Source of the DNA: Streptomyces halobius
Lineage (GTDB): Bacteria > Actinomycetota > Actinomycetes > Streptomycetales > Streptomycetaceae
Length of the DNA: 64,000 bases
Direction of reading: 5' to 3'
NCBI RefSeq assembly: GCF_023277745.1
Contig: NZ_CP086322.1
Coordinates: 6,572,001 to 6,636,000 of the forward strand
Shown here: positions 34,757 through 49,251 of the stretch, piece after piece
Layout of the letters: the number at the start of each line of letters is the position of its first letter
How positions within the stretch are numbered: position 1 is the first letter of the stretch
Made by a program: the position numbers and the translations under genes
The notes under the pieces: model-generated
The model's input: the letters and a program-made list of their open reading frames with translations, nothing else
Databases searched by the model: none
What the model was told of the DNA's origin: nothing

Positions 34757-35788
34757 TCACCGGGCCATCGGGTCGAGGTGCAGGGGTTCCACCTTGCCCT
34801 CGATCATGGCGCCCAGTCCCTGTACGGCGCAGGTGCTGGGGAAGTCCGCGATATGCACCGGCATGGTGGTGGCCTGATGGATCATCGACTCCAGGCCGGG
34901 GATCAGCGCGCTGCCGCCCGCGAGCATCAGACCGCGCTCCCCGAGGTCGGCGACCAGGTCCGGCGGGCAGCGGCGGAGGACCGCCCCGATGCCGTCGAGA
35001 ATCGCGGTCAGAGGGGTGGCGACGGCATGCCGGATCCGCTCGGGGTCGACGAACACGGAGCGGGCCTGGCCGCTGTGTACGTCCCGGCCGTGCACTTCGT
35101 TCGCACCCGAGGCGGCTCCGTCGCCGTTCGAGAGCAGCAGGTGCATCGGGCGTACGCCCCGGCCCCGCAGCATCAGCTGGTGGTGCAGCCGCAGATGCTG
35201 GATGACCGCGTGATCGATGGCATTGCCGCCCACGGGGACGGTCTCGGCGGCCACGATCGAACCGAGTGAGAGCACCGCGACCTGTGTGGTTCCGGCACCG
35301 CACACCACGATCATGGTCGCTTCGGGGTGCTCCACCGGGAGTCCGCAGCCGACGGCCGCGGCGATCAGCGTGTCGACCAGCTCCACCTGGCGGGCGCCGA
35401 CGCCGGTGAGCGTCTCCACGGCGGCCCGCTGGGTGAGCGGATGGCTGCCGTGCGGGAGGCAGACCGCGGCCCGCAGCACGCGCCGACGCCACCAGCCCCT
35501 GCGCAGCTTTTCGCTGATCAGGCTGCGCAGCAGCCGCTGGGCCATGTCGATGTCCACCACGGTGCCGCCGGTGACCGGGCGGAACACCCGAATGTGGTCG
35601 GGGGTGCGGCCGTCCATCTTCTCGGCCTGGGTGCCGACGGCCAGCATCGCGCCGGTGCGGACATTGACCGCGGCGGCGGTCGGTTCATCGATGAGCAGGC
35701 CCTGGTTCTTGACATACACCCTGGTCCGGGCCGCGCCCATGTCGACGGCGGTCGAGCAGCGCCGCAGCTGGGCCAGGCTGATGGTCAT
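34757..35788 (-). CDS. mbl: MreB/Mbl-family actin-like protein
   Basis: 343 residues. Actin-fold phosphate loops are present: TAVDMGAARTRVYVKNQGLL (phosphate 1), TMIVVCGAGTTQVAVLSLGS (phosphate 2) and GLMLAGGSALIPGLESMI (adenosine loop). LLIDEPTAAAVNVRTGAMLA and VFRPVTGGTVVDIDMAQRLL match MreB. It is divergent from classic MreB in several loops, as is the second actin homologue (Mbl) of Streptomyces that helps build the spore wall. ATG at 35788 has GGAGGAA upstream. The gap to the phosphatase gene (34615-34756) contains CCGGGCTAC/CCATCGG repeats and no gene. Confidence 0.8.
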   Translation of the reverse strand: MTISLAQLRRCSTAVDMGAARTRVYVKNQGLLIDEPTAAAVNVRTGAMLAVGTQAEKMDGRTPDHIRVFRPVTGGTVVDIDMAQRLLRSLISEKLRRGWWRRRVLRAAVCLPHGSHPLTQRAAVETLTGVGARQVELVDTLIAAAVGCGLPVEHPEATMIVVCGAGTTQVAVLSLGSIVAAETVPVGGNAIDHAVIQHLRLHHQLMLRGRGVRPMHLLLSNGDGAASGANEVHGRDVHSGQARSVFVDPERIRHAVATPLTAILDGIGAVLRRCPPDLVADLGERGLMLAGGSALIPGLESMIHQATTMPVHIADFPSTCAVQGLGAMIEGKVEPLHLDPMAR

Positions 35789-35972
35789 GGGTGATTCCTC
35801 CCCAAGGGGACTGGTATGGATGGAGTACTCGCACGTGACCATGCGCACCTGATCACTCGTACGCCATCCTCCGGTCGTGGCACGTCAGCTGCCTGCTGGG
35901 GAGGGCCAGTCGGGGGACGGGAGAAGCGGCGTGGCGCCGGGGCCCGCCCCCTGGCTCGGGGGCGGAACGGCT

Positions 35973-36581
35973 CTAGTCCACGCGCCGCTGGAACAGGCCC
36001 CAGGTGAACTCCGCGACGAGGGCGTGGGGCGTGCCGTCGGGGCCGGGGGCCGTGCAGGCCAGTTTCCATCGGGTGGGCGCGCTGCCCTCCATCGGGCGGG
36101 CCGGGGCGAAGGCGCGGGCGACCTCGTCGACGGTGCAGGACCAGGGGGTGAGGTCCGCGGTGGTCCGGAGCTCGGGGGCGGCGGCGCCGGGCGCCCGCAC
36201 CAGCCAGGCGTTCCAGACGGTGCCGCGGGCGGCGGCGAGCACCTCGAACCGCAGATCGGGCCAGAGGGGGACGGGCCAGGTCAGTGCCTGGCAGGTCAGG
36301 TCGCCGAGGGGCCGGGTGGTGACGGTTTCGGGGGTTCCGAGCAGCGCGCGGTAGGGCTGCACTCCGCCCGCCCGCGGTGTGTGCATCCGGGCCTGCCAGC
36401 GGCGGTTGGCCTCGCGCATCTCCGCGCGGGAGACGCCCAGTTCGCGCAGCGCGTCCTCGACGAGGCCGGGCTGGTGGTCGGCCATGCGGCGCAGCAGGAC
36501 GAGTTGGAAGGCGAGCGGTCCGGGCAGGTGGGGCGGGGCGGGGGAGCCGGCGGGCGGGTCGTTGTCAGTGGTGCGGTTCAT
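35973..36581 (-). CDS. Conserved-looking protein of unknown function, last gene of the glycan cluster
   Basis: 202 residues, soluble. After a Pro-rich start it has a helical segment (PLAFQLVLLRRMADHQPGLV, EDALRELGVSRAEMREANRR) and then a mixed alpha/beta region (WPVPLWPDLRFEVLAAARGT, VWNAWLVRAPGA, KLACTAPGPDGTPHAL). I do not recognise it. ATG at 36581 lies inside the end of the FkbM gene (about 17 nt overlap); another ATG at 36590 is possible. The overlap argues for co-translation with the cluster. Confidence 0.7.
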   Translation of the reverse strand: MNRTTDNDPPAGSPAPPHLPGPLAFQLVLLRRMADHQPGLVEDALRELGVSRAEMREANRRWQARMHTPRAGGVQPYRALLGTPETVTTRPLGDLTCQALTWPVPLWPDLRFEVLAAARGTVWNAWLVRAPGAAAPELRTTADLTPWSCTVDEVARAFAPARPMEGSAPTRWKLACTAPGPDGTPHALVAEFTWGLFQRRVD

Positions 36582-37374
36582 GATGGACATGGTCGTGGAC
36601 GGTGCGGGTCGCGGGGGAGCCGGGACGGTCGCCGTCGGGGAGGAAGAGGACGGAATTGACGTAGCGGCGGTGCGGCGCGAGGGAGCGGCGCAGCAGCCCG
36701 TGTTCGGCGACGTGGGAGGTGCGGGACTGGTGAGCGGACAGATCGAAGTCGGCCAGTGGTGTCCAGTGGGCGTGCGGCAGGACCCAGCCGCGATAGCCGC
36801 GGGCGGCCGTCCAGTCCAGTACCGGCCCGAGCGGCTGGATGCGGGTCTCCAACTCGACGAAGAGCGACGGGTGTTCGCGCTCGATGAGGTCGGCGGCGCC
36901 GCGCAGCACCGCCAGCTCTCCGCCGTCCACGTCGATCTTGATGAGGGTGACCGCGGCCAGCCCGAGGGCGTCCAGGGGGAGGCAGGGCACGTCCAGGGCG
37001 GTGCCGTGCAGTCCGCGGCGGACGAGCGAGGAGACCCCGCGGTCGCCGCGGCCGTCCGGGGGCAGCCAGAGGGTGGCGCAGCCCGCGCGGTCGGTGGCCG
37101 CGGCGGAGACCACCTGGACATGCGCCGGGGAGACGGAGGCGAGCAGCCGGGCGAGGTGGGGGACCGGCTCGATGGTGACGACACGATCCGCGCGCCGGGC
37201 CAGCCGCCGGGTCCAGGGGCCGTACCACCCGCCGACGTCCACGGCCGTGCCGCCCGGCGGGCAGAAGTCGGCCAGCCGCCGCAGCTCCGGTTCGAACCGC
37301 GGATAGAGCCCGGCCGCCAGGGCCGACACCAGCCGGCCGGGGAGCCGCGGGCCGAGCCGGGCGGCGAGCGTCAC
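36565..37374 (-). CDS. FkbM-family SAM-dependent methyltransferase
   Basis: 269 residues. The SAM-binding motif is GGTAVDVGGWYGPWTRRLA, followed by VVTIEPVPHLARLLA. The FkbM signature LIKIDVDGGELAVLRGAADL lies in the middle, with HPSLFVELETRIQPLG after it. FkbM enzymes O-methylate hydroxyls, often on sugars or polyketides; here a surface sugar is likely from context. GTG at 37374 overlaps the Trm112-like stop by 4 nt (GTGA). Confidence 0.88.
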   Translation of the reverse strand: MTLAARLGPRLPGRLVSALAAGLYPRFEPELRRLADFCPPGGTAVDVGGWYGPWTRRLARRADRVVTIEPVPHLARLLASVSPAHVQVVSAAATDRAGCATLWLPPDGRGDRGVSSLVRRGLHGTALDVPCLPLDALGLAAVTLIKIDVDGGELAVLRGAADLIEREHPSLFVELETRIQPLGPVLDWTAARGYRGWVLPHAHWTPLADFDLSAHQSRTSHVAEHGLLRRSLAPHRRYVNSVLFLPDGDRPGSPATRTVHDHVHHEPHH

Positions 37375-37748
37375 GACCGTGTCTCCTGGTCGGCGGTGTG
37401 GTGCGTGGCCTCGGGTGCCGGGGCGGAGGTGGCCGAGCCGATGGTGGCCGATCCGGTGCTGGCCGGGCCGGTGGTGGCCGGGGCCGAGGGGGATGGTGCG
37501 ATGTTGGCGTCGGCTTCGGTGTCACATGTCAGGGATCCGGTGTCCGCGAGGTGGCGGAGGATGCGGACGTGTTCGGCGTCGGTGACCTGCTCGCCCGAGG
37601 AGGGGAGGAGCTGGGGGATGCCGTCGGCGATCGGATAGCGGCGCCGCAGCCGGGGGTTGTAGAGGGCGTCGTCGGGGGTGAGGAGGGACAGCGGGCCCTT
37701 GTCGAGCGGGCAGGCGAGGATCTTCAGCAGTGGGTCATCTGGCTTCAT
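37371..37748 (-). CDS. Trm112-family protein with low-complexity tail
   Basis: 125 residues, about twice the length of a typical bacterial Trm112. The first ~62 are the Trm112 fold: LLKILACPLDKGPLSLL with one Cys, then YNPRLRRRYPIADGIPQLLP. The remainder is an Ala/Thr/Ser/Pro tail with repeats of ATTGPASTGSATIGSAT, absent from standard family members. Trm112 proteins act as small activators or stabilisers of methyltransferases. Placement between three methyltransferase genes fits that role (inference). ATG at 37748 lies 14 nt inside the preceding EamA-like gene. Confidence 0.78.
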   Translation of the reverse strand: MKPDDPLLKILACPLDKGPLSLLTPDDALYNPRLRRRYPIADGIPQLLPSSGEQVTDAEHVRILRHLADTGSLTCDTEADANIAPSPSAPATTGPASTGSATIGSATSAPAPEATHHTADQETRS

Positions 37749-38760
37749 GGCTCAACTCCGTTAGGGGGGAGGGTGGTTCACCGGCAGGGGATTCACCGGC
37801 AGAGAGTTCAGAGGCAGAGGGGTCACGGGCAGCGGAAGAGGTGGTGGCCGGGGCGGGGTCGGGGGCTCGGGCCGGGGCGCCGCGGTCGTGGCGGGGAAGT
37901 GCGAGCAGGACGGACAGGGCGACGGCCGTGCCGCCCAGCCGGAGCGCCAGCCGTACCGGCTCGGCGGGTAGCGGTTCCCCGAAGGCGACGGTGCCGCAGG
38001 CGACGGTGAAGACACAGGTGACGGTCGAGCAGACGGGGACGATGACGGAGGCGCGGCAGCGTTGCAGCGCGGTCTGGGACAGCACCAGGCCGGTGGCTCC
38101 GGTGAAGACAAGGAGGTACGGGTAGGGCGAGCGGAAGAGTTCCGCGGCGGCGCCCGGGATGTCGCGGGTGGTGAGCAGTCCGGAGACGCCCTTGATGGCG
38201 AGTGAGCTGACGCCGTAGAGCAGGCCGACGGCCACTCCGTAAGGGACGCCGGCGGTCGGCAGACGGTGGCGGCGCCTGGCGCGGCGTTCCGCCGAGGCGT
38301 ACAGCAGCAGCCCGGCGGCCAGCGACGGCACGGCGATGGCGAGCAGCCGCGCGGGCGGCGCGGTACGGGCGATGGCCCGCGCGTCATCGCCCTGGAGGGA
38401 GGCGACGACCAGCACCAGCGCGACGAGGATCGCCACGATGCCCTGCCGCTCGCGGCCGCTGGTCCGCTCGCCGAGCACCACCGAGGAGAGGAGCAGCAGC
38501 AGGACCAGACCCGAGACGAAAATGCCCTGAGCGGCGGCGAGGGGGAGGGTGCGATAGACGGCGAGTTGGGCGGCGAAGCCGGCGGCCAGGGCGAGCGAGC
38601 CGCCGAGCCACAGCGGGCTGCCGACGAGATGGCGCACGACCCGGGCGGGCTGCCGGGTACAGAGCGCGGGCAGCGCGGACAGCGCGCGCTTCTCCAGCAC
38701 AAAGCCGGTGCTGTAAAGGACGTTGGCGAGCAGCGCGGCCGCCACGCCCCACCACAGCAT
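37735..38760 (-). CDS. EamA/DMT-like multi-spanning membrane protein
   Basis: 341 residues with about nine to ten hydrophobic segments. It begins MLWWGVAAALLANVLYSTGF, then ALCTRQPARVVRHLVGSPLW, GIFVSGLVLLLLLSSVVLGE, and later LVFTGATGLVLSQTALQRC and VIVPVCSTVTCVFTVACGTV. This is the small-multidrug/drug-metabolite-transporter arrangement of two half-repeats. The tail is an Asp/Pro/Ser-rich repeat (LSAGESPAGEPPSP). In a glycan cluster it could carry a lipid-linked sugar or act as a flippase, but this is inference only. ATG at 38760. Confidence 0.75.
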   Translation of the reverse strand: MLWWGVAAALLANVLYSTGFVLEKRALSALPALCTRQPARVVRHLVGSPLWLGGSLALAAGFAAQLAVYRTLPLAAAQGIFVSGLVLLLLLSSVVLGERTSGRERQGIVAILVALVLVVASLQGDDARAIARTAPPARLLAIAVPSLAAGLLLYASAERRARRRHRLPTAGVPYGVAVGLLYGVSSLAIKGVSGLLTTRDIPGAAAELFRSPYPYLLVFTGATGLVLSQTALQRCRASVIVPVCSTVTCVFTVACGTVAFGEPLPAEPVRLALRLGGTAVALSVLLALPRHDRGAPARAPDPAPATTSSAARDPSASELSAGESPAGEPPSPLTELSHEAR

Positions 38761-38764
38761 CGCC

Positions 38765-39538
38765 CTACTCCCTTCTCCGGCGGGCATGCGCGAGCAGGAT
38801 GGAGGCCAGCGACGGGACATGGCACGCGGCGCGGTCGAGGGGCCGCAGCGGGCGCGGCACATCGTGATACGGCGCGCCGGCGATCCGTACGACATCGAAG
38901 CCGGACGCGGTGAGAAAGCCACGGAGCGCCCGGGCGGTGTAGAGGCGCAGATGGCCGACGACCTGGGTGCCGGGCCGGCCGTGGACATGTCGCATGCTCA
39001 CCTCCGAGAAGACGGGCTGGACCCCGGCGAGCAGGAGTCCGCGGTTGTACCAGGCGGCGAGATTGGGGGTGGAGAGCATCAGATGACCGCCGGGGCGCAG
39101 CACCCGGCGCAGTTCGTCCAGGGCCGCGTCGGGGTCGACGAGATGCTCGACGACCTCGCCGAAGAGGACGGCGTCGGCGGAGCCGGTCGCGAACGGCAGC
39201 CCGCCGTCCGTCAGTTCACCGCGTACCGCATACGGGACACGGGTCGCGGCGCGGCGCAGCGCGTCCTGCGACCAGTCGACGCCGACCAGCCGGTGACCGG
39301 CGAGGACGCCCGCGGCGGTGGCGGCCGCGGTGCCGTCGCCGCAGCCGATGTCCAGGATGGTCGCGGCCGGCGTCCCGGTGCGTACCGGGCCCAGGGCGCG
39401 GGCCAGCAGCAGGGCCTGCCGTCGGCTGCGGGCATCACCGGAGGCGACCGGCACGGCGGGGTTCTCGTAGAAGTCGCGCAGTCCGGCGGGGGTCGGCGCG
39501 GGGCCGGGGGAAGGAGGAGCGGTCGGGGGACGGGTCAT
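38765..39538 (-). CDS. Class I SAM-dependent methyltransferase
   Basis: 257 residues. The SAM motif is ATILDIGCGDGTAAATAAG near residue 60, followed by LVGVDWSQDALRRAATRV, VLFGEVVEHLVDPDAALDEL and LRRVLRPGGHLMLSTPN, the usual UbiE/methyltransferase-11-like pattern. C-terminal RALRGFLTASGFDVVRIAG is conserved. The substrate is unknown. ATG at 39538 overlaps the preceding gene's stop by 4 nt (ATGA); the EamA-like gene starts 4 bp after its stop. Confidence 0.85.
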   Translation of the reverse strand: MTRPPTAPPSPGPAPTPAGLRDFYENPAVPVASGDARSRRQALLLARALGPVRTGTPAATILDIGCGDGTAAATAAGVLAGHRLVGVDWSQDALRRAATRVPYAVRGELTDGGLPFATGSADAVLFGEVVEHLVDPDAALDELRRVLRPGGHLMLSTPNLAAWYNRGLLLAGVQPVFSEVSMRHVHGRPGTQVVGHLRLYTARALRGFLTASGFDVVRIAGAPYHDVPRPLRPLDRAACHVPSLASILLAHARRRRE

Positions 39539-41145
39539 CGGGCGCCTCCTTCGGCCCGGGGCGCGGGCGGAGTCGGGGGTGGGGCCCAGGCGGTGGCGGC
39601 GAGCGAGCTCTCGAAGAGCTCGCCCAGCCGGGCGCCGGCCGCGTCGTCCAGGAGGGCGTGCGACCAGCGCAGCGCGAGCTGGACGCGGCCGCCGACGGAG
39701 ACGGTGGTGACGGTCAGCCCGCGCGGCATCCGGGCCGGGGCGGAGAACCACACCGCGGTCGGGCGGCCCGCGTCACCGAAATCCAGCGGGTAGGGGATAC
39801 GGCCGATGTTGGAGAGGAGCGTGGTGGACGTCCAGGGGGCGGCGACGGTACGCAGCGCGCGGGTGACCGCCCCGCGCAGTCCGACGGGCAGTACGGGAGC
39901 GGTCAACAGCGCTCCGGCGAGCCCGAGTTGGGATCCGGTCGTGGACTTGAGGGCGCGGGTGCGGGCGGCCGTACGACGCAGCAGCCGGGCCACCGCGCCG
40001 GGGTCGGGCGGGTCGGCGGTGAGCAGCTCGGCGTCCCGGCGTTCCTCGGGGCCGAAGCCCACCGAGACCAGCCGGGTGCCGTTGCCGATGGGCATGTCCG
40101 CCCCGCGCGGGCGGTCGTCCACGGGCATGGTGACGACGACGGGGGAGGCGGGGACATCGTGCAGCCGGTTCCAGCGGGCCGCCATCAGACAGGTGGCGAC
40201 GAGAAGTTGATCGTTGACGGTGTAGCGCGCCCGGCCGTCGACGCGCGGCGGCCGGGCGGGAACGGGGAGCTCGGTGATGAGCATGCCGTTGTCGGTGAGG
40301 GGGTTGGTGCCGGTCTTGGTGCCGGTGTTGATGGCGGTGTTGGTGGGGGGCTGGATGAGGTCGCTGTGCTCCTGCCACCGGCTGCGCTCCCGGTCGTGGC
40401 CGACGCCCTGCGCGTGGCTGTGCTCCTGCCGCTGGCTGGGGTCCTGTTCGTGGTCCTGGTTCTGCTCGCGGCGGTCGTTCGGCGTGTGGTCGGGGGCGAG
40501 GCGGGCCGGGCGGGCGAGGCCGTGTCCGGGGCCCGCGGCGTCTCCGGGGCGGTTCCGGTCCCCGGCGGGTCCGGTGGCGCGTACGGGCGGCGGGGCCGGG
40601 GAGTTGTCCGCGCCCCCGTACAGCTCGGCGGCGGTGGCCAGCACACGGAGGCAGGCCGGGCCGTCCAGCGCGGTGTGGTTGATGGCGAGGAACAGTACGG
40701 TGCCGTCGGCCGCCCCCGGGCGTTCGATCACCTCCAGCCGCACGGGCGGCGACGCGTCCAGGGGCGGGCAGCCCGCGAGCGCGCGTTCCCGGGCCCGTAC
40801 CAGCGCGTCCGGGCCGGGTGGCGGGAAGACGACCGGGTCCACATCCGGGGCGGCGGTGAGCTCCCACTCGTAGCGGCGGCACCACCGGCGGACGGGGGCC
40901 TGGCGCATCAGGACGCGGGGGTGCCGGGTGAGCGCCTGGTGGAACGCGGCGCGCAGGCGCGCAGGGTCGACCCGCCCCGGGAGGTGCACCTCGATGTGGA
41001 CGGTCTCCGGCTCGTCGTCCTGGAGGCAGTGCCGCGCGATCTCGTCGACGACGGGGAAGGGGACGCGGGCGAGGACGGGTTGGCGGGCCGTGGCCGTCGG
41101 CGGGCCGCCGGACGGTTCGTGCCGGGCCGGTTGCAGTGCGGTCAT
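39535..41145 (-). CDS. Condensation/PapA-like acyltransferase
   Basis: 536 residues. It has the two-lobe chloramphenicol-acetyltransferase-like fold. The first lobe includes IEVHLPGRVDPARLRAAFHQ and the catalytic motif TVLFLAINHTALDGPACLRV (N-H-x-x-x-D-G, in place of H-H-x-x-x-D-G). The second has YTVNDQLLVATCLMAARWNR and STTLLSNIGRIPYPLDFGDA. A long Gln/His/Arg-rich insert with repeats of EQDPSQRQEHSHAQG (DNA about 40270-40540) splits the lobes. No adenylation or carrier domain is nearby, so this is a stand-alone acyltransferase, probably acylating the glycan. Its ATG shares one base with the preceding stop. Confidence 0.78.
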   Translation of the reverse strand: MTALQPARHEPSGGPPTATARQPVLARVPFPVVDEIARHCLQDDEPETVHIEVHLPGRVDPARLRAAFHQALTRHPRVLMRQAPVRRWCRRYEWELTAAPDVDPVVFPPPGPDALVRARERALAGCPPLDASPPVRLEVIERPGAADGTVLFLAINHTALDGPACLRVLATAAELYGGADNSPAPPPVRATGPAGDRNRPGDAAGPGHGLARPARLAPDHTPNDRREQNQDHEQDPSQRQEHSHAQGVGHDRERSRWQEHSDLIQPPTNTAINTGTKTGTNPLTDNGMLITELPVPARPPRVDGRARYTVNDQLLVATCLMAARWNRLHDVPASPVVVTMPVDDRPRGADMPIGNGTRLVSVGFGPEERRDAELLTADPPDPGAVARLLRRTAARTRALKSTTGSQLGLAGALLTAPVLPVGLRGAVTRALRTVAAPWTSTTLLSNIGRIPYPLDFGDAGRPTAVWFSAPARMPRGLTVTTVSVGGRVQLALRWSHALLDDAAGARLGELFESSLAATAWAPPPTPPAPRAEGGAR

Positions 41146-44100
41146 CAGCTGGTCTCCTCCCCGCTGCCGCCGGGGCGGACGGGGCCGTCGGGGCCGTCGT
41201 CCCGAGCCCGGTCGGCACCGCCCGGCCGCCTCCGGTCGGCCCAGTCCGGCCCGCCGGACCGCGTCCGCCCCTGGGCCACGATCGGCCGCCCGGCCTCGGC
41301 CGGCACACCCGCCCTGGACGGGCCGCGCCGCGCCGGTCCGCCCCGCGTCCCGGCGCTCCCGGTTGACCGCCCGGCGTCTTCGTCCCGGCCGCCCGGCTCC
41401 CCGTGCCCCGTCCCGCCGTCCCGCCGCCGACGGGGCAACGGTGGTGCGGGTGGAGGCGACGGCGGCGCGTATGGACCGGACGACGGGGGTGACGGGGACG
41501 AGGTCGGCGCGTACGGACCGGATGACGGGCGCGACGGGAACGACGGAGACGCATACGGACCGGACGACGCCGGCGAGAGGCCCGGATCAGGCATCTCCGC
41601 CGGGCCGTCCGCGACCGCGCCCCGTCCCGTCGGCCGGTGCCGCACCGGTACGGTCACCACTGCCGCCGCGAGCGCCAGCAGGGCCAGCGCCTGGGCGGTC
41701 CCGCTGAACGCGCCCTCGCCGGCGGCGGCCGGCCCGCCCGCGCCGAGGGCCGCCGTAGCGCCCGCGCCCAGCATGGCGAGGAAGGCGAGCGGCAGCAGCA
41801 GGTCCGGCCGGAAGCGGGCGAGCAGCGCCAGCAGCGGCACGATCAGGGCGTACGGCCCCGCTGCCATCGCCACCACCACGGTGAGCGCCAGCGTGCCCAG
41901 CACCCAGGACGGCGCGGGCGGGGCCTGCGCGTCCGGTGGCGGGGTGCGCGGGGTGCGCCGGACGAGGGCGGAGACGATCAGCAGTGCGATGCCCAGGGCG
42001 CCGCCGATCAGGCCGAGGTGGTAGGCGGTGGCCGGTTCGTAGAACAGCTCGACGGTGCCGCCCGCGCCCGCCGGGACGAGGAAGCCCTGCTGCCAGCCGT
42101 CCAGGCGGAGGGGCGTCAGTTCCCGGCCGTTGAGGGTGGCGCGCCAGCCGTCGTTGGCGTTCTCGTACATCTGGAGATAGGCGGCCCTGCCCGCTCCGAC
42201 GGCGACGGTGCGGCGATCGCCCGCCCAGTCCCGGGCGGTGACGTCACGTACCGGAGACGCAACCGTGGAAGCAGCCGAGGACGCCCCGGGTGCCCCGGCC
42301 CCCTCCCCCCTCCGCAGCGTCACATCCGTCAGGGCCAGTGGGCCCTGGTCACCGGCCTCCACCCGGTGCTGCCCGGACGGCAGTTCCAGGTGGCCGTCGC
42401 GGGCCTCGCCGGCACACAACTCCACCTCGACCGGGCGGCGTTCGGTGAGATCGCGGACGTGTCCGGAGGCGCGCGTGGCGTGCAGTACGCCGTCGACGGC
42501 GAGCATCGGGCCCTGGCCGCAGCCGACCGAGAAGCGTTCGTCGGCCGGCGGCCGCGGGGTGCGGTAGGCGTCCAGCGCCGGGAGATGGACCTCGCTGAGG
42601 CCCACCGGCAGCTGGAGGGCCTGCCCGGCGACGGGGTTGTGCAGGGTCAGCGGCTTGACCTTGCTGATGGTGATGTCGAGGCGGTCGGTGGTGATCGGGT
42701 CGAAGCGGGCCTGGCCGTTCTCGTCGACGCCCGCGGTGGCCGCGCCGTCGGGCGAGTTGATCAGTATCTGCTCGGGCCGGGTGGAGATCCCGCCGGCCGC
42801 GGCCAGCACGATCTGGTCGATCTTCTTCTTGCCGGGCCAGCGCAGATGGAGCGTGGGCCGGTCGCCCGCGATCCAGGCGGTGGTCAGATCGCCGTCGACG
42901 AGGTTGCGGGGGCTGAGCGACGGGCCGAAGCCGAAGCCGGTGGAGTCGGCGGTGGCGGTGATCCGGTCCTTCTGCCCGGGTGCGATCCGGTCCAGCAGCC
43001 GGTCGAGTTCGGGTCCGGGGACGGCCACCGCCTTGCCGGAGATCTCGTAGGACGCGCCGGTGCGCGTACGGAACTGGCGGTGCAGCCCGTTCTCGGCGGA
43101 GACCGGGGAGAGTCCGCCGGGATCGCTGCCCCGGTGGAGGGAGACGGTCTCGGCGGGGGCGCCGGAATCCTGTGCGTCGGCGGGGAGTTGGAGGAGACGG
43201 GTGACCTGCACGCCGGGGACGGAGACCTCCGCGAAGCCGGCGCCGGAGAGGCCGGCGCGCGGGGTCTGCGAACCGAGGATGGTGACCTTCAGCCAACGCG
43301 CCTTCCCGGCCGGGGCCTTGACCTGCTGCGGGGACCCGTCGGGCCGCAGCGGGCTCTCGGCGCTGCCGCGGTCGGTCTGGACGCGTACGGAGGTCGGGGC
43401 GGCGCGCAGACCGTCGCCGGGCAGCGGAGTGAGCGAGATCGACGACGGGACGGTCGTCGGCCGGGTGAAGGCGATCTGCACCCACTGGCCCACGGGGTCG
43501 CCCGCGCTGCCCTCCGCCCAGGCGGTGTCCGGGTTGCCGTCGAAGGCGTTCACCGGGTCGTACTGCGGCAGGTGGAAGAGCCAGTTGCCGCTGGTGGAGG
43601 CGGTGACGGAGCGGGCGCCGCGGAGTACCGCGGTGGTCTGGTGCGCGATGCCGGAGGTGGGCAGGATCTGCCGGGGCGGCCGGCCGGGGTCCTGGACGCT
43701 GTCGGGATGGTTGGTCTCGTCGGCCGTGTACGTGTACGACGTATTGCTGTTGACCAGGCCGAAGCGGGTGTCGGCGCGGCGCAGGCCGTCGGCGGTGAGC
43801 TGGAGCGACGGGGTGCCGATGCCGGGGTGATGGTCGCCGGCCAGGATGGTGGGGCGGGAGCGCAGGGCGGGGTCGGCGGACAGCTGGAGGAGGGCCTCCG
43901 GGCCGCCGCTGAGCCGTGCGGTGTCCGCGACGGACTTGGCGGTGACCGGGCCGGGCTCCGGAGTGTCGCGGGGCTCGTAGATCTCGACGGAGCGCTGGCG
44001 CGGGTAGAGGCCCTGGATCTGCGGCGGTGTCCCGGCGGGGATCCTCCCCCCGGTGGTCAGCGGGCCGAAGGCGGCCACCTTGCGGTAGCCGGATGCCTCC

Positions 44101-45785
44101 AGGGTGCGTGCGACGGTCTGCGGTGGGACGTAGCCGATCTGGTCCGGATCGAGATCGTTGCGTACGACCACGTCGTGGATCCCGGCACGGCCCAAGTGGT
44201 CGCGCAGGCCGGGGACGTGGGCGCCGGTCAGCAGGGCCTGTTCGACGGCGTCCAGGGCGCGGCGGGAGCCCGGGGTGCCGAACGGGACGAAGTCACGCTG
44301 CGCCCAGGGGGACCGGGCGAGGACGTCCAGGGGCTGGTCGATCGGCGAGCCCCAGGTGTAGATGCCGTGTGCGGTGGCGGGGACGACCAGGGCCCGGTTG
44401 TCGGGGGTGTGGGTCCTGAGCCAGTCGGCGGTCCGCTCCCAGTAGCCGGGGAGTTTGGTGAAGGCGCCGGGCTGGAGGACGCTGCCGGTCAGGAAGGGGA
44501 GGGCGAGGGCGGGCAGGACGAGGAAGGCGGTGAGGAGCGGGAGCCGGCGGCGGGCGGGAACGCGGCGGGTGCCCCGGCGTTCCGCGACGACCTGGAGCAG
44601 ATGCGCCAGCCCGAGGGTGAGCGCCAGGGCGAGGCCGGGGGCGAATTTGTAGATGTTGCGGAACGGGCGCAGCCAGCCGTTCAGCCAGTCCTGCCACAGG
44701 CCGTGTGCGGGGCCGCCCAGCGCACCGCCGTATCCGGCCAGCGTGATGAGCGCCACGGCCAGCACGGTCAGCAGCAGCCAGCGCCGCTCGGGCAGATCGC
44801 GGCGGGCCAGTCCGGCCAGGCCGAGCGCGGCGGCCAGCGCGGAGCCGAGCACCGCGAACGCGTTGGCCGTCATGGTCAGACCGGCCGGCAGCCAGGGTTC
44901 GCCGAAGTTGAGATAGCCGACCCAGTTGCCCGCGCCGCGCAGCAGCTCGGTGGCGGACATGGTGCCGGTGGTGGTGTCGGCCTGCTCGATGAACGGCATG
45001 AAGTCCTCGCCGTGGATGCCCAGCAGGAGCAGCGGTACCACCCACCAGGCGGTGGCCAGCAGCACACCGGGGATCCACCAGGCCAGCAGCTTCGGGCGGC
45101 GCGGCCCCGTACGGGAGAGCAGATACAGGCCGACGGGTAACAGCGAGGCCAGCGTCGAGGCCGCGTTGACACCTCCCATGAAGGGGATCAGCAGTGCCGA
45201 GCGGGTGGCCGCGATTCGGGCGCTGACCTGTGCGTTCGTCAGTGGCAGCAGCACCCAGGGCAGCAGCGCGCCGGGCAGCGCGGCCGCGGAGGTGGAGCCG
45301 ATGACGATGGTGAACGTCGGCCACAGGGCGTAGCAGGCGGCGGCCATCGTCCGGGACGGCGCGGTGCCGAAGCTCAGCCGTTCGGCCAGTCGCAGCGCGC
45401 CCCAGAACGCGGCGGTCACGATCAGCGACATCCACAGCCGCTCGGCCAGCCAGACGGGGAGGTGCGCCAGATCCGTCAGGCCGTAATACGGGAGGGTCGG
45501 GAAGGCATAGCCGACGTACTGGTCCGCGATACCGCCGAAGCCCGCCCGGTCGTGCCACAACTGCCCGAGGTCGCCAAGGAACCGCCAGGGGTCCGTCGTC
45601 ACGCCCAGCTTGGTCTCGAAGGTCATCTTCCCTGGTGAGGGGGCCAGAAAGCCGACCAGGGTGAGCGCCCAGAACCCGAACAGCCAGCGCCTGCCACGAG
45701 GTTGGCCGGACGGCGGGGCGGACGTGGACGTGTCCCCGGTGTCGGGCGATCCCGGGGACATGGACGGTTCGAGGGTCTGGGTCAT
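41145..45785 (-). CDS. AftD-like (DUF3367) membrane arabinofuranosyltransferase-type protein with carbohydrate-binding domains
   Basis: 1546 residues. The N-terminal ~480 residues hold about eleven membrane segments with the GT-C-type first-loop acid region (GFLAPSPGKMTFETKLGVTT). FRNIYKFAPGLALALTLGLA and WLRPFRNIYKF are typical of the mycobacterial AftD family. Two discoidin-like (F5/8 type C) modules follow in the outside part (FDGNPDTAWAEGSAGDPVGQ, VDGDLTTAWIAGDRPTLHLR). A beta-rich module leads to three or more C-terminal membrane segments and a cytoplasmic Gly/Pro-rich tail with three SGPYA repeats. Decaprenyl-phospho-arabinose is the known donor for this family; in Streptomyces the sugar is not known. 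ATG at 45785. Confidence 0.83.
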   Translation of the reverse strand: MTQTLEPSMSPGSPDTGDTSTSAPPSGQPRGRRWLFGFWALTLVGFLAPSPGKMTFETKLGVTTDPWRFLGDLGQLWHDRAGFGGIADQYVGYAFPTLPYYGLTDLAHLPVWLAERLWMSLIVTAAFWGALRLAERLSFGTAPSRTMAAACYALWPTFTIVIGSTSAAALPGALLPWVLLPLTNAQVSARIAATRSALLIPFMGGVNAASTLASLLPVGLYLLSRTGPRRPKLLAWWIPGVLLATAWWVVPLLLLGIHGEDFMPFIEQADTTTGTMSATELLRGAGNWVGYLNFGEPWLPAGLTMTANAFAVLGSALAAALGLAGLARRDLPERRWLLLTVLAVALITLAGYGGALGGPAHGLWQDWLNGWLRPFRNIYKFAPGLALALTLGLAHLLQVVAERRGTRRVPARRRLPLLTAFLVLPALALPFLTGSVLQPGAFTKLPGYWERTADWLRTHTPDNRALVVPATAHGIYTWGSPIDQPLDVLARSPWAQRDFVPFGTPGSRRALDAVEQALLTGAHVPGLRDHLGRAGIHDVVVRNDLDPDQIGYVPPQTVARTLEASGYRKVAAFGPLTTGGRIPAGTPPQIQGLYPRQRSVEIYEPRDTPEPGPVTAKSVADTARLSGGPEALLQLSADPALRSRPTILAGDHHPGIGTPSLQLTADGLRRADTRFGLVNSNTSYTYTADETNHPDSVQDPGRPPRQILPTSGIAHQTTAVLRGARSVTASTSGNWLFHLPQYDPVNAFDGNPDTAWAEGSAGDPVGQWVQIAFTRPTTVPSSISLTPLPGDGLRAAPTSVRVQTDRGSAESPLRPDGSPQQVKAPAGKARWLKVTILGSQTPRAGLSGAGFAEVSVPGVQVTRLLQLPADAQDSGAPAETVSLHRGSDPGGLSPVSAENGLHRQFRTRTGASYEISGKAVAVPGPELDRLLDRIAPGQKDRITATADSTGFGFGPSLSPRNLVDGDLTTAWIAGDRPTLHLRWPGKKKIDQIVLAAAGGISTRPEQILINSPDGAATAGVDENGQARFDPITTDRLDITISKVKPLTLHNPVAGQALQLPVGLSEVHLPALDAYRTPRPPADERFSVGCGQGPMLAVDGVLHATRASGHVRDLTERRPVEVELCAGEARDGHLELPSGQHRVEAGDQGPLALTDVTLRRGEGAGAPGASSAASTVASPVRDVTARDWAGDRRTVAVGAGRAAYLQMYENANDGWRATLNGRELTPLRLDGWQQGFLVPAGAGGTVELFYEPATAYHLGLIGGALGIALLIVSALVRRTPRTPPPDAQAPPAPSWVLGTLALTVVVAMAAGPYALIVPLLALLARFRPDLLLPLAFLAMLGAGATAALGAGGPAAAGEGAFSGTAQALALLALAAAVVTVPVRHRPTGRGAVADGPAEMPDPGLSPASSGPYASPSFPSRPSSGPYAPTSSPSPPSSGPYAPPSPPPAPPLPRRRRDGGTGHGEPGGRDEDAGRSTGSAGTRGGPARRGPSRAGVPAEAGRPIVAQGRTRSGGPDWADRRRPGGADRARDDGPDGPVRPGGSGEETS
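41455..41580. repeat. In-frame tandem repeat in the tail of the AftD-like gene
   Basis: Three imperfect ~40-50 bp units, each containing GC(G/A)TA(T/C)GGACCGGA(C/T)GACG, encode successive SGPYAxPS motifs on the minus strand. The unit lengths keep the frame. Confidence 0.75.
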
Positions 45786-45834
45786 GACAACCGCCGGGGG
45801 ACGAGGGGCGGCCGGCCGGGGAAGCGGAGCAAGG

Positions 45835-46560
45835 TCATGCCAGCCGCCGGAGGATGAGGAGGAGGTTCCAGGTGGCGAACTCGCGGACGCCGGGGAGGCG
45901 GGGAATGGTCTCGGCGAGGAACGGTGCATAGCGCGAGCGGGCCGACACGACGGCGATGTCGTCGCGGGCGCGCACCTGACGCAGGGTGGGGCCGATGTGC
46001 ACGGTGAAGAGGTTCTCGCCCAGGGTGTGCTTGGCCGGCCGGCCGGTGCGCCGCCGGTAGCGGGCACGGGCCCGCTCGGCCCCCAAGTAGTGCCAGGGCG
46101 CGGTCTCATGGCCGCCCCAGGGGGACAGCCAGTTGGTGAAGGACACATAGATCAGCCCGCCGGGGCGGGTGACCCGGACCAGTTCGCTCAGGAAGGTCCG
46201 TGGGTCGGCGACGTGCTCCAGCACGTTGGACGAGAAGCAGACATCGGCGGCGCCGTCGGCCAGCGGCAGCAGATAGCCGTCCGCGACCACCGCCCCCTCG
46301 GGGACCCGGCCGCGGGCGGTCAGCTCCGCCGTATCGGGCTCGAAGAGATAGCCGTGCGCGCCGCGGCGCCGGAACTCCTCGGTGAAGTGCCCGCTGCCGC
46401 CGCCGATGTCGGCGACCACCGCGCCCTTCAGCGGGATATGGCGTTCGACCTGGTCGGCGGCGTCGCGGGCGAGCAGCCGGTAGCACTGTTCCGGTTCGGC
46501 CTGTTCCCGGAGGAAGGCCCGGAAGAGGGCGTAGGACCTGCGGAGCGAGGGGTCGCGCAC
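45835..46560 (-). CDS. Class I SAM-dependent methyltransferase
   Basis: 241 residues. KGAVVADIGGGSGHFTEEFR is the SAM motif, with GYLFEPDTAELTARGRVPEG and FSSNVLEHVADPRTFLSELV followed by RVTRPGGLIYVSFTNWLSPW. The C terminus (FAETIPR-type and ATWNLLLILRRLA) is close to sugar and lipid methyltransferases of mycobacteria-like surface-glycan loci. GTG at 46560 lies 7 bp after the stop of the GT4 gene. It is separated from the AftD-like gene by 49 bp. Confidence 0.85.
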   Translation of the reverse strand: MRDPSLRRSYALFRAFLREQAEPEQCYRLLARDAADQVERHIPLKGAVVADIGGGSGHFTEEFRRRGAHGYLFEPDTAELTARGRVPEGAVVADGYLLPLADGAADVCFSSNVLEHVADPRTFLSELVRVTRPGGLIYVSFTNWLSPWGGHETAPWHYLGAERARARYRRRTGRPAKHTLGENLFTVHIGPTLRQVRARDDIAVVSARSRYAPFLAETIPRLPGVREFATWNLLLILRRLA

Positions 46561-46567
46561 CGGTGCC

Positions 46568-47767
46568 TCACCGCCTGCGGAGCGTGTTGACGAACGCCTC
46601 CGCGGCGACCGCCCGGAAGCTGCGGACCGTATGGCTCCATCGGAAGCGGGCGGCGCGCTCCGCGGCGGCCGCGGCCAGGGCGTCCCGGCGGCGGCCGCTG
46701 AGGGCGAGGGTGCACCAGTGCGCGGCGAACGCGCTCTCGCCACGGGCCAGCAGACCGGTGACGCCGTCCTCCACGGAGTCGCGCAGGCCGGGGATGTCGA
46801 AGCCGACAGCGGGGGTCCGGCGCGCGGCGGCCTCCATGACCACCAGGCCCCAGCCCTCGACGAGCGAGGGGTGCAGCAATACCCACGCAGAACAGAGAAG
46901 TTGGTGTTTACGCTGCTCGGATATGTGGCCGGTGAAGGTGACATCGGGGCCGGCCATCGCCGTCAGCCGCGCCCGCTCCGGCCCGTCGCCGACGATCACG
47001 ATCCGGCCGCCGGTCACCGGGCGCACCCGCTCCCACAGACGCAGCAGCAGATCGATGCGCTTGTACTCGACGAGCCGCCCCATGGCCAGGAAAAGCGGTT
47101 CCGGCGCCTTCGGCACGAGCGGTCCGGGCTCTTCGACACCGTTGTGGACCAGGCGGATACGGTCCGGATCCACGCCGAGGCCGTGCAGCGCGGACGCCGT
47201 CGAATCCGAGACGGCGACCATCAGGTTGCGGCGGTGGGTACCGGCCAGCGCCCAGTGCTCCAGACGGCGGCCGAGCCGGGCGGCGGGCCCCGGATAGCGC
47301 ATCCGCCACAGGTCCGTATGGACGTGGTTGACCAGGCACAGTGTCGGGCCACGGTGCCACAGCGGCGCCAGATACGGCATCCCGTTGCACACCTCGACCA
47401 GCAGATCGCAGGCGCCGACCCGGCGGGCCAACTGGCGGGGCGCACGCAGGAAATGACCGGCGTCGCCGCCCGCGGACACCACGCGGTAGTTGCGGATGGG
47501 GGCACCTCCCTGCTCGAGCGGAGCCGAGAGCTTGGGGGAGGCCGGTCCGCCGCACAGCAGGGTGACCTCGTGGCCGTGTGCGGTGAGCCCTTCGGCGATC
47601 CGGTCCACCAGGAGCTCGGAACCGCCGGCGGCGGCGTTCCCGAGGTCGCGGCGGGCCAGGAAGACGATACGGCGGGGAAGCGGGGGCGGCCCGGACGAGG
47701 GGGGTGCGGGCAGGGGGGACGGCGGGGGTGGTGCGAGGGGCGGTGACGGTGGTACGTGCTGGGGCAT
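46568..47767 (-). CDS. Family-4 glycosyltransferase (GT-B fold)
   Basis: 399 residues. After a Pro-rich leader the N-terminal half begins RIVFLARRDLGNAAAGGSEL. The C-terminal half has LFLAMGRLVEYKRIDLLLRL, IVIVGDGPERARLTAMAGPD and the donor-binding EX7E motif in HPSLVEGWGLVVMEAAARRT. This is a retaining, nucleotide-sugar-using enzyme that probably acts on the cytoplasmic side. In frame between CGGP and IRNYRV it carries residues ASPKLSAPLEQGGAP, encoded by short repeat element copy A. ATG at 47767 follows a 398-bp gap. It is the first gene of the tightly packed cluster. Confidence 0.86.
   Translation of the reverse strand: MPQHVPPSPPLAPPPPSPLPAPPSSGPPPLPRRIVFLARRDLGNAAAGGSELLVDRIAEGLTAHGHEVTLLCGGPASPKLSAPLEQGGAPIRNYRVVSAGGDAGHFLRAPRQLARRVGACDLLVEVCNGMPYLAPLWHRGPTLCLVNHVHTDLWRMRYPGPAARLGRRLEHWALAGTHRRNLMVAVSDSTASALHGLGVDPDRIRLVHNGVEEPGPLVPKAPEPLFLAMGRLVEYKRIDLLLRLWERVRPVTGGRIVIVGDGPERARLTAMAGPDVTFTGHISEQRKHQLLCSAWVLLHPSLVEGWGLVVMEAAARRTPAVGFDIPGLRDSVEDGVTGLLARGESAFAAHWCTLALSGRRRDALAAAAAERAARFRWSHTVRSFRAVAAEAFVNTLRRR
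47495..47541 (+). repeat. Short interspersed element, copy A, in frame inside the GT4 gene
   Basis: 47 bp starting GATGGGGGCACCTCCCTG, with the interior CTCGAGCGGAGCCGAGAG and ending CTTGGGGGAGG. The interior and ends match copy B (48183-48268); the ends match copy C (19093-19132). It adds about 15 residues without a stop. Confidence 0.75.
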
Positions 47768-48165
47768 GTGCGCTCCAACTCGTCTCAGGGTGCGGTACCA
47801 GCGGTGGGGGACGTACTGCGCTGAGTCGTTCGGGGCTGTGCTGCATCATGCTGCGGTGCTGGACGTGCTACCGGGCCGGCGTCCGGAGGTACTGCGGTGC
47901 CGACGCGCGGAACCTACTGGTGCTCGGGTGTTGCCGAACTGCCGTATTGCTCGGGTGTTGCCGTGGTGGCGCTGAAGGTATGTCCGTGTTGCCGAGGTAT
48001 TGACGTTCTGCTGCGGTGCCGTTGCCGTGGTGTTTCGGAATTCTGCCGACTGGAAGCACGGTCGTCTGCGTGTGGGGTGGATAGTTTTCGCCGCCGTGTT
48101 CGATACGGCTACTCACCGGGATGACAAGTCCGGGGTCCGTCCTCGCTGACGGATCCGCACTTCGC
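47768..48165. other. Gene-free region upstream of the GT4 gene, with direct repeats
   Basis: No gene seen. TGCTCGGGTGTTGCCG occurs at about 47930-47945 and 47949-47964, and shorter GTTGCCG copies follow to 48030. The promoter of the nine-gene cluster should lie here, but I see no clear consensus. Confidence 0.5.
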
Positions 48166-49251
48166 TCAGGGCCTGCCGATCCGCCTCCCCCACGTTCTCG
48201 GCCGCTCCCCCACGTTCTCGGCTCCGCTCGAACAGGGGCGACCCCCATGACCAGGGAGGTGCCCCCATCCGCGCACCACCAACACCACGCCCACCAGCGC
48301 AAGCACGCCGCCCGCCGCCGCGGCGCCCACCGGGAGCCTCTCCCCGACCAGCGCCAGCTTGTCGCTGTCGGCCTTCGCCAGCGCCACCTGGGCCCGCTGC
48401 GTCGCGGGCGTGAACTGGAGGTGCTCGCCGTCCAGCAGCGTCACCGCGTCGCGCCGGGCACCCGGCGCCCGCAGCGTCTTGCGCGGCGAGATCGAGGCAT
48501 GGATGATCCGGCCGGTGCGCCGCTCGACGACCAGCTCGATCCCGGAGTTCGCATACCACTCCTCGGCCTGGATCTGGCCCTGCGTCGGCCGCCCGACCAG
48601 CCGGCCGGGAACCTGCCGGCTGCCGGTCCGGGTGGGCCGTACGGTCCCGGTGAAGCGATAGCCCCGGTACCCCTGGATCGTCTTCGTCCCGGCGAAGCGG
48701 AGCGGCACTGCGGCGCCCAGTGTGTTGTCCCACCAGCGGTAGCTCTTCTTCTGCACATCAAAGGGGAATTTGAGGTACGCATCCCCGTCGAAGCGGGTCG
48801 GGGCCTCCTCGCAGCAGTGCACCGGGGCATTGCTGCGCCGGTCGACGACCCAGCGTTCGGTGGTCCACTGGAACGCCTTCCGCGGATCCTTCAGGGCCAG
48901 CGTCTTCGGGGTGTCGACCGTCGTGGAGACATCCCACACGGCCCGCCCGCTCGCCAGGCTCGCCGGGACGTCGCCCAGCACATGGCGGGTGATGGTGATC
49001 TTCTGCCGCTCCCTGGTCTTGAGTGACGTGGTGTCGAAGTAGGCGCCGCGTCCGGTGAAGACCGTGGTGACATCGACATCGACCGGGGTGACCTTGGCCC
49101 GCGGCTCGACGTACCAGGCCAGCATGGGCGCGAGGACCAGCAGGAAGACGCCGAGACCCAGCAGGACCAGCGACAGGGGCGAGGCGGTGACCGGGACTCC
49201 GGCCCGCTCGGACCGGGCCGAACGGTCGGGGCTCGTACCGGAATTACGCAT
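48166..49251 (-). CDS. DUF3068 (PorA-family-like) membrane-anchored protein
   Basis: 361 residues. An N-terminal membrane segment (LSLVLLGLGVFLLVLAPMLA) precedes a long outside region: TPVDVDVTTVFTGRGAYFDT, RYVVDRRSN-type turns, CCEEAPTRFDGDAYLKFPFD, GYRFTGTVRPTRTGSRQVPG and EEWYANSGIELVVERRTGRI. A second membrane segment near the C terminus (AAAAGGVLALVGVVLVVRGW) anchors the far end. This layout is that of the DUF3068 family, linked to the actinobacterial envelope. The last ~28 residues are encoded by short repeat element copy B. ATG at 49251. It is probably associated with the glycan cluster on the same strand. Confidence 0.78.
   Translation of the reverse strand: MRNSGTSPDRSARSERAGVPVTASPLSLVLLGLGVFLLVLAPMLAWYVEPRAKVTPVDVDVTTVFTGRGAYFDTTSLKTRERQKITITRHVLGDVPASLASGRAVWDVSTTVDTPKTLALKDPRKAFQWTTERWVVDRRSNAPVHCCEEAPTRFDGDAYLKFPFDVQKKSYRWWDNTLGAAVPLRFAGTKTIQGYRGYRFTGTVRPTRTGSRQVPGRLVGRPTQGQIQAEEWYANSGIELVVERRTGRIIHASISPRKTLRAPGARRDAVTLLDGEHLQFTPATQRAQVALAKADSDKLALVGERLPVGAAAAGGVLALVGVVLVVRGWGHLPGHGGRPCSSGAENVGERPRTWGRRIGRP
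48183..48268 (-). repeat. Short interspersed element, copy B, at the 3' end of the DUF3068 gene
   Basis: On the minus strand it starts GATGGGGGCACCTCCCTG, has TCGAGCGGAGCCGAGA inside and ends GGGGGAGG. It is 86 bp, longer than copy A, with an internal duplication of CTCCCCCACGTTCTCGG (48184-48200 and 48204-48220). Confidence 0.75.

What the first reader, a model, noticed from the sequence alone, without database searches (positions are those of the whole stretch)
35973..49251. Packed surface-glycan assembly locus built around an AftD-like protein
Nine minus-strand genes run with overlaps or gaps of at most 49 bp: GT4, methyltransferase, AftD-like DUF3367 giant, PapA/condensation-like acyltransferase, methyltransferase, EamA-like membrane protein, Trm112-like, FkbM methyltransferase and an unknown. 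A DUF3068 envelope protein sits just upstream and a PucR regulator beyond it. AftD is known from mycobacterial arabinogalactan/arabinomannan, a polymer not described for Streptomyces. The set predicts a methylated and acylated extracellular glycan of unknown structure.
Basis: inference. Interest (0 to 1): 0.7.

Follow-up and report, generated by a model that had tools for sequence, protein, structure and literature searches.

The report
Streptomyces relative of mycobacterial envelope locus
A group of genes that tuberculosis-type bacteria use to build and move parts of their special outer coat is also present, in a fixed order, in many Streptomyces that are not known to have such a coat, which suggests that they make an undescribed surface sugar-lipid.

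Summary
Nine minus-strand genes (35973-47767) have overlaps or gaps of at most 49 bp. A DUF3068 gene and a divergent PucR regulator lie upstream. It is not chance: 31 of 31 unnamed Streptomyces loci are collinear, as are 55 of 55 named loci with full flanks (4 loci are in both sets).

The core, DUF3068 (NCBIfam equivalog of PgfA), GT4, methyltransferase and AftD, corresponds to the Corynebacteriales aftD-tmaT-lmcA/pgfA-mtrP locus and recurs in other actinomycete families. A condensation-fold acyltransferase, second methyltransferase, NIPA/EamA protein and Trm112 protein form a Streptomyces-type tailoring block; FkbM and the last gene vary.

Arabinose is not supported for this genome: no DPPR synthase, DprE1 or Emb was found. 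In all, 14 of 60 AftD-positive Streptomyces showed neither of the first two; other Streptomyces carry both.

Best reading: assembly and trafficking of a lipid-linked surface glycan, with AftD as an extracytoplasmic GT-C enzyme using a polyprenyl-phosphate sugar of unknown identity. New variant of a known kind; interest 0.55.

The parts
49684..51048 (+). PucR-type regulator (C-terminal HTH_30), divergent from the rest
   Evidence: PF13556 E 3.8e-20; found divergent within 3 kb of DUF3068 in 92 of 97 Streptomyces loci with flank
48166..49251 (-). DUF3068 / PgfA-LmcA family envelope protein; soluble domain between an N- and a C-terminal hydrophobic segment
   Evidence: PF11271 E 2e-77; NCBIfam NF053601 PgfA equivalog 323.8 bits, cut-off 160; weak match to the LmcA crystal chain 7n3v, E 8e-4; hydropathy
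46568..47767 (-). GT4 glycosyltransferase, counterpart of the GT (Rv0225 position) in the Corynebacteriales locus
   Evidence: PF13692 E 3e-26; best genome-wide match of the family-f3 locus GT4, E 2.4e-40, next 2.2e-16
45835..46560 (-). MT1, class I methyltransferase, counterpart of MtrP / Rv0224c
   Evidence: PF08241 E 9e-18; best genome-wide match of the family-f3 locus methyltransferase, E 1.3e-53, next 3.0e-7
41145..45785 (-). AftD-family GT-C glycosyltransferase with F5/8-type and AftD-type carbohydrate-binding modules, about 1546 aa
   Evidence: PF11847 E 5e-212, PF24607 E 1e-14, PF00754 E 4e-10; match to the solved AftD-type chains 6w98 and 6wbx over nearly their whole length, E 3e-132
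39535..41145 (-). condensation/BAHD-fold acyltransferase (PapA-like)
   Evidence: invariant HxxxD (H157, D161) in 28 homologues; 251 PDB chains at E<=0.001, condensation and HCT folds, best 2.2e-12, from a model of mean pLDDT 65.5
38765..39538 (-). MT2, class I methyltransferase
   Evidence: PF08241 E 1e-19; 31 of 31 loci, 56 of 57 named loci with flank
37735..38760 (-). NIPA/EamA (DMT superfamily) membrane protein; candidate flippase (inferred)
   Evidence: PF05653 E 3e-10; 29 of 31, 55 of 56
37371..37748 (-). Trm112-like protein, a likely methyltransferase partner (inferred)
   Evidence: PF03966 E 1e-10, over cut-off; the NCBIfam Trm112 equivalog cut-off is not reached (33.5 of 77 bits); 31 of 31, 52 of 56
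36565..37374 (-). FkbM-family methyltransferase, variable end of the cluster
   Evidence: TIGR01444 E 8e-18; 22 of 31, 48 of 56
35973..36581 (-). conserved protein of unknown function, variable end of the cluster
   Evidence: no family match; 18 of 31, 39 of 54; confident model (pLDDT 86.5) without a convincing PDB match

Best explanation
This is a Streptomyces version of an ancient actinobacterial envelope locus whose best-known form is the aftD-tmaT-lmcA/pgfA-mtrP region of Corynebacteriales. Proposed mechanism: the GT4 enzyme builds a lipid-linked (glyco)lipid or glycan precursor in the cytoplasm. MT1, MT2 (with Trm112), the condensation-fold acyltransferase and, in many strains, FkbM methylate and acylate it. 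The NIPA/EamA protein may flip it. DUF3068/PgfA carries or presents the lipid outside the membrane. AftD, held to the growing glycan by its carbohydrate-binding modules, adds sugar residues outside from a polyprenyl-phosphate donor. The PucR protein controls the divergent promoter. In this genome the donor is probably not polyprenyl-phosphate arabinofuranose; polyprenyl-phosphate mannose is the simplest known alternative in the genus. Shown here: families, gene order, correspondence of the core with the Corynebacteriales locus, and failure to find the known arabinose-donor genes. Inferred: every biochemical step, the order of steps and the product.
For: Collinear order in 31 of 31 unnamed and 55 of 55 named full-flank Streptomyces loci. 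PgfA equivalog. The methyltransferase and GT4 of a family-f3 locus, which carries an AT3 acyltransferase next to DUF3068, have their best match in this genome at MT1 and GT4, by 46 and 24 orders of E-value over the next, and no comparable match in the two AftD-negative Streptomyces tested. The core recurs outside Streptomyces: of 18 hand-picked loci of 9 families, GT4 is near AftD in 18, DUF3068 in 15 (one at only 39 bits), MT1 in 14, all three in 13; 8 control stretches (two overlap) gave none but the expected second DUF3068. AftD keeps E267 and K59 in 137 of 137 sequences and an acidic residue at 57 in 137 of 137. In Corynebacterium, loss of the DUF3068 gene affects LM/LAM and loss of TmaT, MtrP or MmpA affects trehalose-lipid export (PMC8698533, PMC8972800, passages); mycobacterial PgfA co-precipitates with MmpL3 (PMC9678360, passages). 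No DPPR synthase or full DprE1 was found here.
Against: No product, transcript or mutant is known. AftD presence is statistically associated with DPPR synthase and DprE1 in the genus (Fisher p 0.001 and 1e-5; relatedness not removed), which speaks for arabinose in part of the genus. Streptomyces species are reported to have lipoteichoic acid and are not known to make LM/LAM (PMC3196553, PMC5882110, passages). In 5 of the 18 non-Streptomyces loci the core is incomplete within 20 kb or the held contig, and in 4 deeper-branching loci MT1 and DUF3068 were not found. No AT3 TmaT counterpart is among the nine genes; MmpA was not searched for.
Confidence: 0.6

Rival explanations
1. The locus makes a true arabinofuranose-containing polymer (arabinan or LAM-like), with AftD using polyprenyl-phosphate arabinose as in mycobacteria.
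For: AftD family membership. 56 of 150 Streptomyces carry a DPPR synthase at 44-51% identity and 55 of those 56 a DprE1 homologue. AftD presence is positively associated with both.
Against: The window's own genome and 13 other AftD-positive genomes of 60 showed neither; in the 8 of these 14 that were re-searched at E<=0.001 there was no DPPR synthase and only partial matches to the FAD-binding part of DprE1. No Emb in 9 of 9 Streptomyces tested. 24 genomes have DPPR synthase without AftD. The Streptomyces AftD has Gly or Ala (112 of 112 rows) where 21 of 25 others have Asp at position 61.
Confidence: 0.2
2. It is a biosynthetic cluster for a decorated small glycolipid (specialised metabolite) that borrowed envelope enzymes.
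For: Patchy presence (60 of 150 Streptomyces); condensation-fold acyltransferase, several methyltransferases and a dedicated divergent regulator; second copies in 2 genomes, one 0.2 Mb from the end of an 11.4 Mb chromosome (G294); aftD is named among the frequently recombined genes of S. rimosus (PMC6437091, one passage).
Against: Order and content are very steady. No PKS, NRPS or sugar-nucleotide gene among the nine. The core is shared across actinomycete families and with the envelope locus of Corynebacteriales.
Confidence: 0.15
3. The genes serve glycosylation of secreted proteins, as the Pmt pathway does.
For: Pmt of S. coelicolor transfers mannose from polyprenol phosphate mannose to peptides outside the membrane (PMC5882110, passages).
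Against: AftD with several carbohydrate-binding modules and DUF3068/PgfA points to polymer and lipid; no known protein-glycosylation enzyme among the nine.
Confidence: 0.05

Closest known systems
aftD-tmaT-lmcA/pgfA-mmpA-mtrP locus of Corynebacteriales (NCgl2757-2764; Rv0224c-Rv0236c)
   Same: AftD, DUF3068 (LmcA/PgfA), GT and MtrP-type methyltransferase together, plus an acyltransferase (PMC7775120, PMC8698533, PMC8972800, PMC6034362, passages)
   Different: A condensation-fold acyltransferase instead of AT3 TmaT; extra MT2, NIPA/EamA, Trm112, often FkbM; PucR regulator; no Emb found. That Streptomyces lack mycolic acids is established knowledge, not tested here. MmpA was not searched for.
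AftD arabinofuranosyltransferase (PDB 6w98, 6wbx)
   Same: Homology over nearly the full length, GT-C domain and carbohydrate-binding modules, acidic positions 57 and 267
   Different: Position 61 is Gly or Ala in 112 of 112 Streptomyces rows; donor genes not found in this genome
PgfA / LmcA (DUF3068)
   Same: Passes the NCBIfam equivalog cut-off twofold
   Different: Function in a host without known mycolates or LM/LAM is untested; the genome has a second copy elsewhere
Condensation/BAHD/PapA acyltransferases
   Same: HxxxD motif and fold
   Different: No Pfam or NCBIfam model matches; substrate unknown

Membership tests
AftD (PF11847) | GT-C N-terminal domain over the curated cut-off | tested here: met
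   705.8 bits, cut-off 26
AftD (PF11847) | C-terminal carbohydrate-binding modules | tested here: met
   PF24607 and PF00754 over cut-off
AftD (PF11847) | conserved acidic residues of the GT-C active site | tested here: inconclusive
   E267 in 137 of 137; position 57 D in 97, E in 40 of 137. Their catalytic role is recalled; PMC6034362 (passage) names other motifs (DX3DX18D and DX2EX12E) for C. glutamicum AftD, which I did not map
AftD as arabinofuranosyltransferase | decaprenyl/polyprenyl-phosphate arabinose pathway in the host | tested here: not met
   no DPPR synthase at E<=0.001 and only partial DprE1 matches in the own genome; the same DPPR query matches 67 of 150 in the genus at 1e-10
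AftD as arabinofuranosyltransferase | arabinosyl transfer activity | not testable with these tools
   needs biochemistry
Corynebacteriales aftD/tmaT locus | AftD, DUF3068, GT and MtrP-type methyltransferase at one locus | tested here: met
Corynebacteriales aftD/tmaT locus | AT3-type acyltransferase TmaT | tested here: not met
   the acyltransferase of the window is of condensation fold and no PF01757 match was seen in the proteins scanned; AT3 found in loci L203 and L216
Corynebacteriales aftD/tmaT locus | MmpA (Rv0226c) membrane protein | not tested
   MmpA was not used as a query
PgfA/LmcA | NCBIfam NF053601 equivalog | tested here: met
   323.8 bits, cut-off 160
PgfA/LmcA | binding of a lipid transporter of the MmpL3 type | not testable with these tools
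   needs protein-interaction work
Condensation/PapA acyltransferase | HxxxD(G) motif | tested here: met
   H157 and D161 invariant in 28 rows, G162 in at least 90%
Condensation/PapA acyltransferase | fold of the condensation/BAHD superfamily | tested here: met
   251 PDB chains at E<=0.001, top rows probability 1.00, query TM 0.38-0.50, rmsd 10-16; model mean pLDDT 65.5 with a disordered middle

The most novel reading that the evidence does not exclude
The mycobacterial AftD/PgfA/MtrP locus is a specialised descendant of an older actinobacterial glycan-lipid assembly and trafficking system that needs neither mycolic acids nor arabinose. In Streptomyces such as this one it builds an undescribed methylated and acylated lipoglycan, with AftD transferring a sugar other than arabinofuranose.
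Probability: 0.35. Interest if true: 0.75.

Novelty: new variant of a known kind. Interest (0 to 1): 0.55.

Why it matters
AftD, PgfA/LmcA and MtrP are studied for roles in arabinogalactan, LAM and mycolate export in Corynebacteriales, where some are essential (PMC6034362, PMC7775120, PMC9678360, passages). Finding their counterparts together in hosts without known mycolates, where 90 of 150 sampled relatives do without AftD, means that their basic functions can be tested apart from the mycomembrane in harmless, tractable species. It also predicts a surface polymer for a genus whose envelope is thought to be well described, and separates AftD from the known arabinose donor genes in 14 of 60 AftD-positive Streptomyces sampled.

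Tried and rejected
Residue 57 against donor genes: Glu at 57 goes with absence of DprE1 (10 of 14 against 9 of 48 rows, Fisher p 4e-4), but on the protein tree only 5 supported independent pairs exist and residue 57 differs in about one of them or none. Rejected as shared ancestry.

AftD against DPPR synthase and DprE1 across the genus: associated, but no species tree was at hand, so relatedness is not removed. Kept as evidence for the rival. Limits of that table: 11 genomes with weak DPPR matches (67 at 1e-10 less 56 strong; 30-35% identity) were counted as negative; no more than 10 candidates a genome were scored; of the 14 genomes with neither gene, 6 were not re-searched, and some are fragmented (G246, 82% complete in 1770 contigs; G267, 1140 contigs; G319, 780 contigs).

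Actinoplanes atsA, met in a search for TmaT: it is followed by chemotaxis genes, so it does not look like this locus (PMC11064477, passages).

Promoter and terminator scan: one promoter-like site outside the nine genes and one terminator-like site inside AftD on the other strand, both within what shuffles give.

The 18 non-Streptomyces loci were picked by hand from the matching genomes for contig length and family spread.

Print status, in this open library only: no paper held both PgfA and Streptomyces. AftD with Streptomyces gave 6 papers: of three I saw passages, PMC2610374 (mention of a hygromycin gene), PMC6437091 (aftD named among frequently recombined S. rimosus genes) and PMC7688586 (clinical isolates); the other three I saw in the listing alone. 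DUF3367/AftD-like terms gave 1 paper. AftD with other genera gave 1,070 papers at two of six terms; the 5 listed held no AftD, so that search settles nothing. The AftD cryo-EM paper PMC7263364 is not held; what I say of catalytic residues 57 and 267 is recalled.
Full report
What is there. The window lies in a 9.24 Mb genome that reads as a Streptomyces: its AftD has best-segment identities of 84-85% with S. inhibens, S. chattanoogensis and S. endophytica. On the minus strand, nine genes run from 47767 down to 35973 with overlaps of 1-17 bp or gaps of 4-49 bp: GT4, methyltransferase (MT1), AftD, condensation-like acyltransferase, methyltransferase (MT2), NIPA/EamA membrane protein, Trm112-like protein, FkbM methyltransferase and a protein of unknown family. 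DUF3068 lies 398 bp upstream of the GT4 gene, on the same strand; a PucR-type regulator points the other way beyond it.

Is it more than chance. In the named set, 55 of 80 loci have full flanks and 55 of 55 keep the order. Counting only loci with enough flank: DUF3068 72 of 72, GT4 74 of 74, MT1 76 of 76, acyltransferase 58 of 58, MT2 56 of 57, NIPA 55 of 56, Trm112 52 of 56, FkbM 48 of 56, last gene 39 of 54. Four loci are in both sets. The PucR gene is divergent within 3 kb of DUF3068 in 92 of 97 loci with flank. The locus is thus PucR/DUF3068-GT4-MT1-AftD-acyltransferase-MT2-NIPA-Trm112, with a variable FkbM/unknown end.

Distribution. AftD is in 60 of 150 Streptomyces, 139 of 296 genomes of the class and 30 of 198 of the phylum. 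DUF3068 is in 114 of 150 Streptomyces, including all 60 with AftD; this genome has a second, stand-alone copy at C1:7276840-7277739.

The core is found beyond mycolate formers. Loci of family f3 (unnamed; both f3 genomes tested carry Emb, so I take it for a mycobacterial family) hold GT4 and MT1 together downstream of AftD in 4 of 4 stretches, and DUF3068 was detected in 2 of 4; an AT3 acyltransferase lies next to DUF3068 in L203. This is the arrangement published for Corynebacteriales: AftD, TmaT, LmcA/PgfA, MmpA, a glycosyltransferase and MtrP (PMC7775120, PMC8698533, PMC8972800, PMC6034362; passages seen). The f3 methyltransferase finds MT1 as its best match in this genome at E 1.3e-53 (next 3.0e-7), and the f3 GT4 finds this GT4 at 2.4e-40 (next 2.2e-16); two AftD-negative Streptomyces have nothing better than 1.5e-7 and 3.4e-16. 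This is a one-way genome-wide test. NCBIfam names the DUF3068 protein PgfA, 323.8 bits against a cut-off of 160. In 18 hand-picked loci of nine further families, GT4 is near AftD in 18, DUF3068 in 15, MT1 in 14, all three in 13; in four deeper-branching loci of the phylum MT1 and DUF3068 were not found. Eight control stretches, two of them overlapping, gave no match of any of the ten queries except the second DUF3068. In L216 of family f83 the same core sits with an AT3 acyltransferase and a polysaccharide flippase-like protein.

The Streptomyces block. The acyltransferase has no Pfam or NCBIfam match, but H157 and D161 of an HxxxD motif are invariant in 28 homologues, and its model (mean pLDDT 65.5) matches condensation, epimerisation and HCT domains (251 PDB chains at E<=0.001, but with rmsd of 10-16 in the listed rows). 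Most of the 120 listed relatives that bear an NCBI name are called condensation protein. It may stand in for the AT3 enzyme TmaT (inference). Trm112 proteins are known methyltransferase partners (family knowledge), so a pairing with one of the methyltransferases is likely. The NIPA/EamA protein belongs to a superfamily that holds flippases of lipid-linked sugars (recalled); its role here is inferred. In the 18 non-Streptomyces loci this block was not seen as a block; only L209 had an acyltransferase match and L205 and L207 a NIPA match.

The donor. Mycobacterial AftD is described as an arabinofuranosyltransferase with a lipid-linked donor (PMC6034362, passages). With the DPPR synthase of an f3 genome as query, 67 of 150 Streptomyces match at 1e-10, of which 56 at 44-51% identity; with DprE1, 82 of 150 at 1e-30. 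The two lie close together (L233, L234). The window's genome has neither, and 14 of the 60 AftD-positive genomes showed neither. In 8 of these 14, searched again at E<=0.001, no DPPR synthase appeared, and DprE1 gave only partial matches to its FAD-binding part (itself carries no positive control, one search is that control). The other 6 were not searched again, and some are fragmented. Emb was absent in 9 of 9 Streptomyces and found in 2 of 20 genomes, both f3. Against my reading: AftD is positively associated with DPPR synthase (32 of 60 against 24 of 90, p 0.001) and with DprE1 (46 of 60 against 36 of 90, p 1e-5), relatedness not removed. So arabinose remains possible in part of the genus but not, by known chemistry, in this genome. 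Streptomyces make polyprenol phosphate mannose and are said not to be known for LM/LAM (PMC5882110, passages).

Is the AftD enzyme likely active. Over 137 sequences (112 Streptomyces rows, 25 others), K59 and E267 are invariant, position 57 is Asp in 97 and Glu in 40, and position 61 is Gly or Ala in all 112 Streptomyces rows but Asp in 21 of 25 others. The enzyme looks intact, with a changed loop beside the first acidic residue; that 57 and 267 are catalytic is recalled, and PMC6034362 names other motifs for C. glutamicum AftD. A link between Glu57 and the missing donor genes fails when relatedness is considered.

Verdict. A real, conserved envelope locus, a new variant of the Corynebacteriales aftD/tmaT kind. 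The product is unknown. The main value is that it makes the basic role of AftD and PgfA testable in species without known mycolates, and that it separates AftD from the known arabinose donor in some hosts.

Noticed in passing
L233:4845-8687; L234:8241-11215: 56 of 150 Streptomyces carry a DPPR synthase at 44-51% identity, 55 of them with a DprE1 homologue, lying next to each other in the two loci read (a small protein between them in L233 looks PAP2-like by eye, not scanned), although no Emb was found in the 9 Streptomyces tested: a possible arabinose-donor module of unknown use.
   Followed up: partly
L232:9326-10324 (G000 C1:7276840-7277739): A second, stand-alone DUF3068/PgfA gene; DUF3068 occurs in 114 of 150 Streptomyces, so also in 54 without AftD.
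   Followed up: partly
L074 and L075 (G294); L093 and L092 (G245): Two genomes carry two copies of the locus, one with Asp and one with Glu at AftD position 57; the Glu copies lack FkbM and the last gene, and that of G294 lies 0.2 Mb from a chromosome end.
   Followed up: partly
window 34757-35848: An MreB/Mbl-like gene follows the locus in the same orientation; matched in 15 of 111 Streptomyces loci held, several of which lack that flank.
   Followed up: partly
L214 (family f77): Three stretches matching AftD within 20 kb, suggesting tandem AftD-type genes; one other f77 genome shows 4 AftD matches.
   Followed up: no
L088, L094: The NIPA/EamA gene gave no match although neighbours on both sides are kept, so this step may be replaceable.
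   Followed up: no
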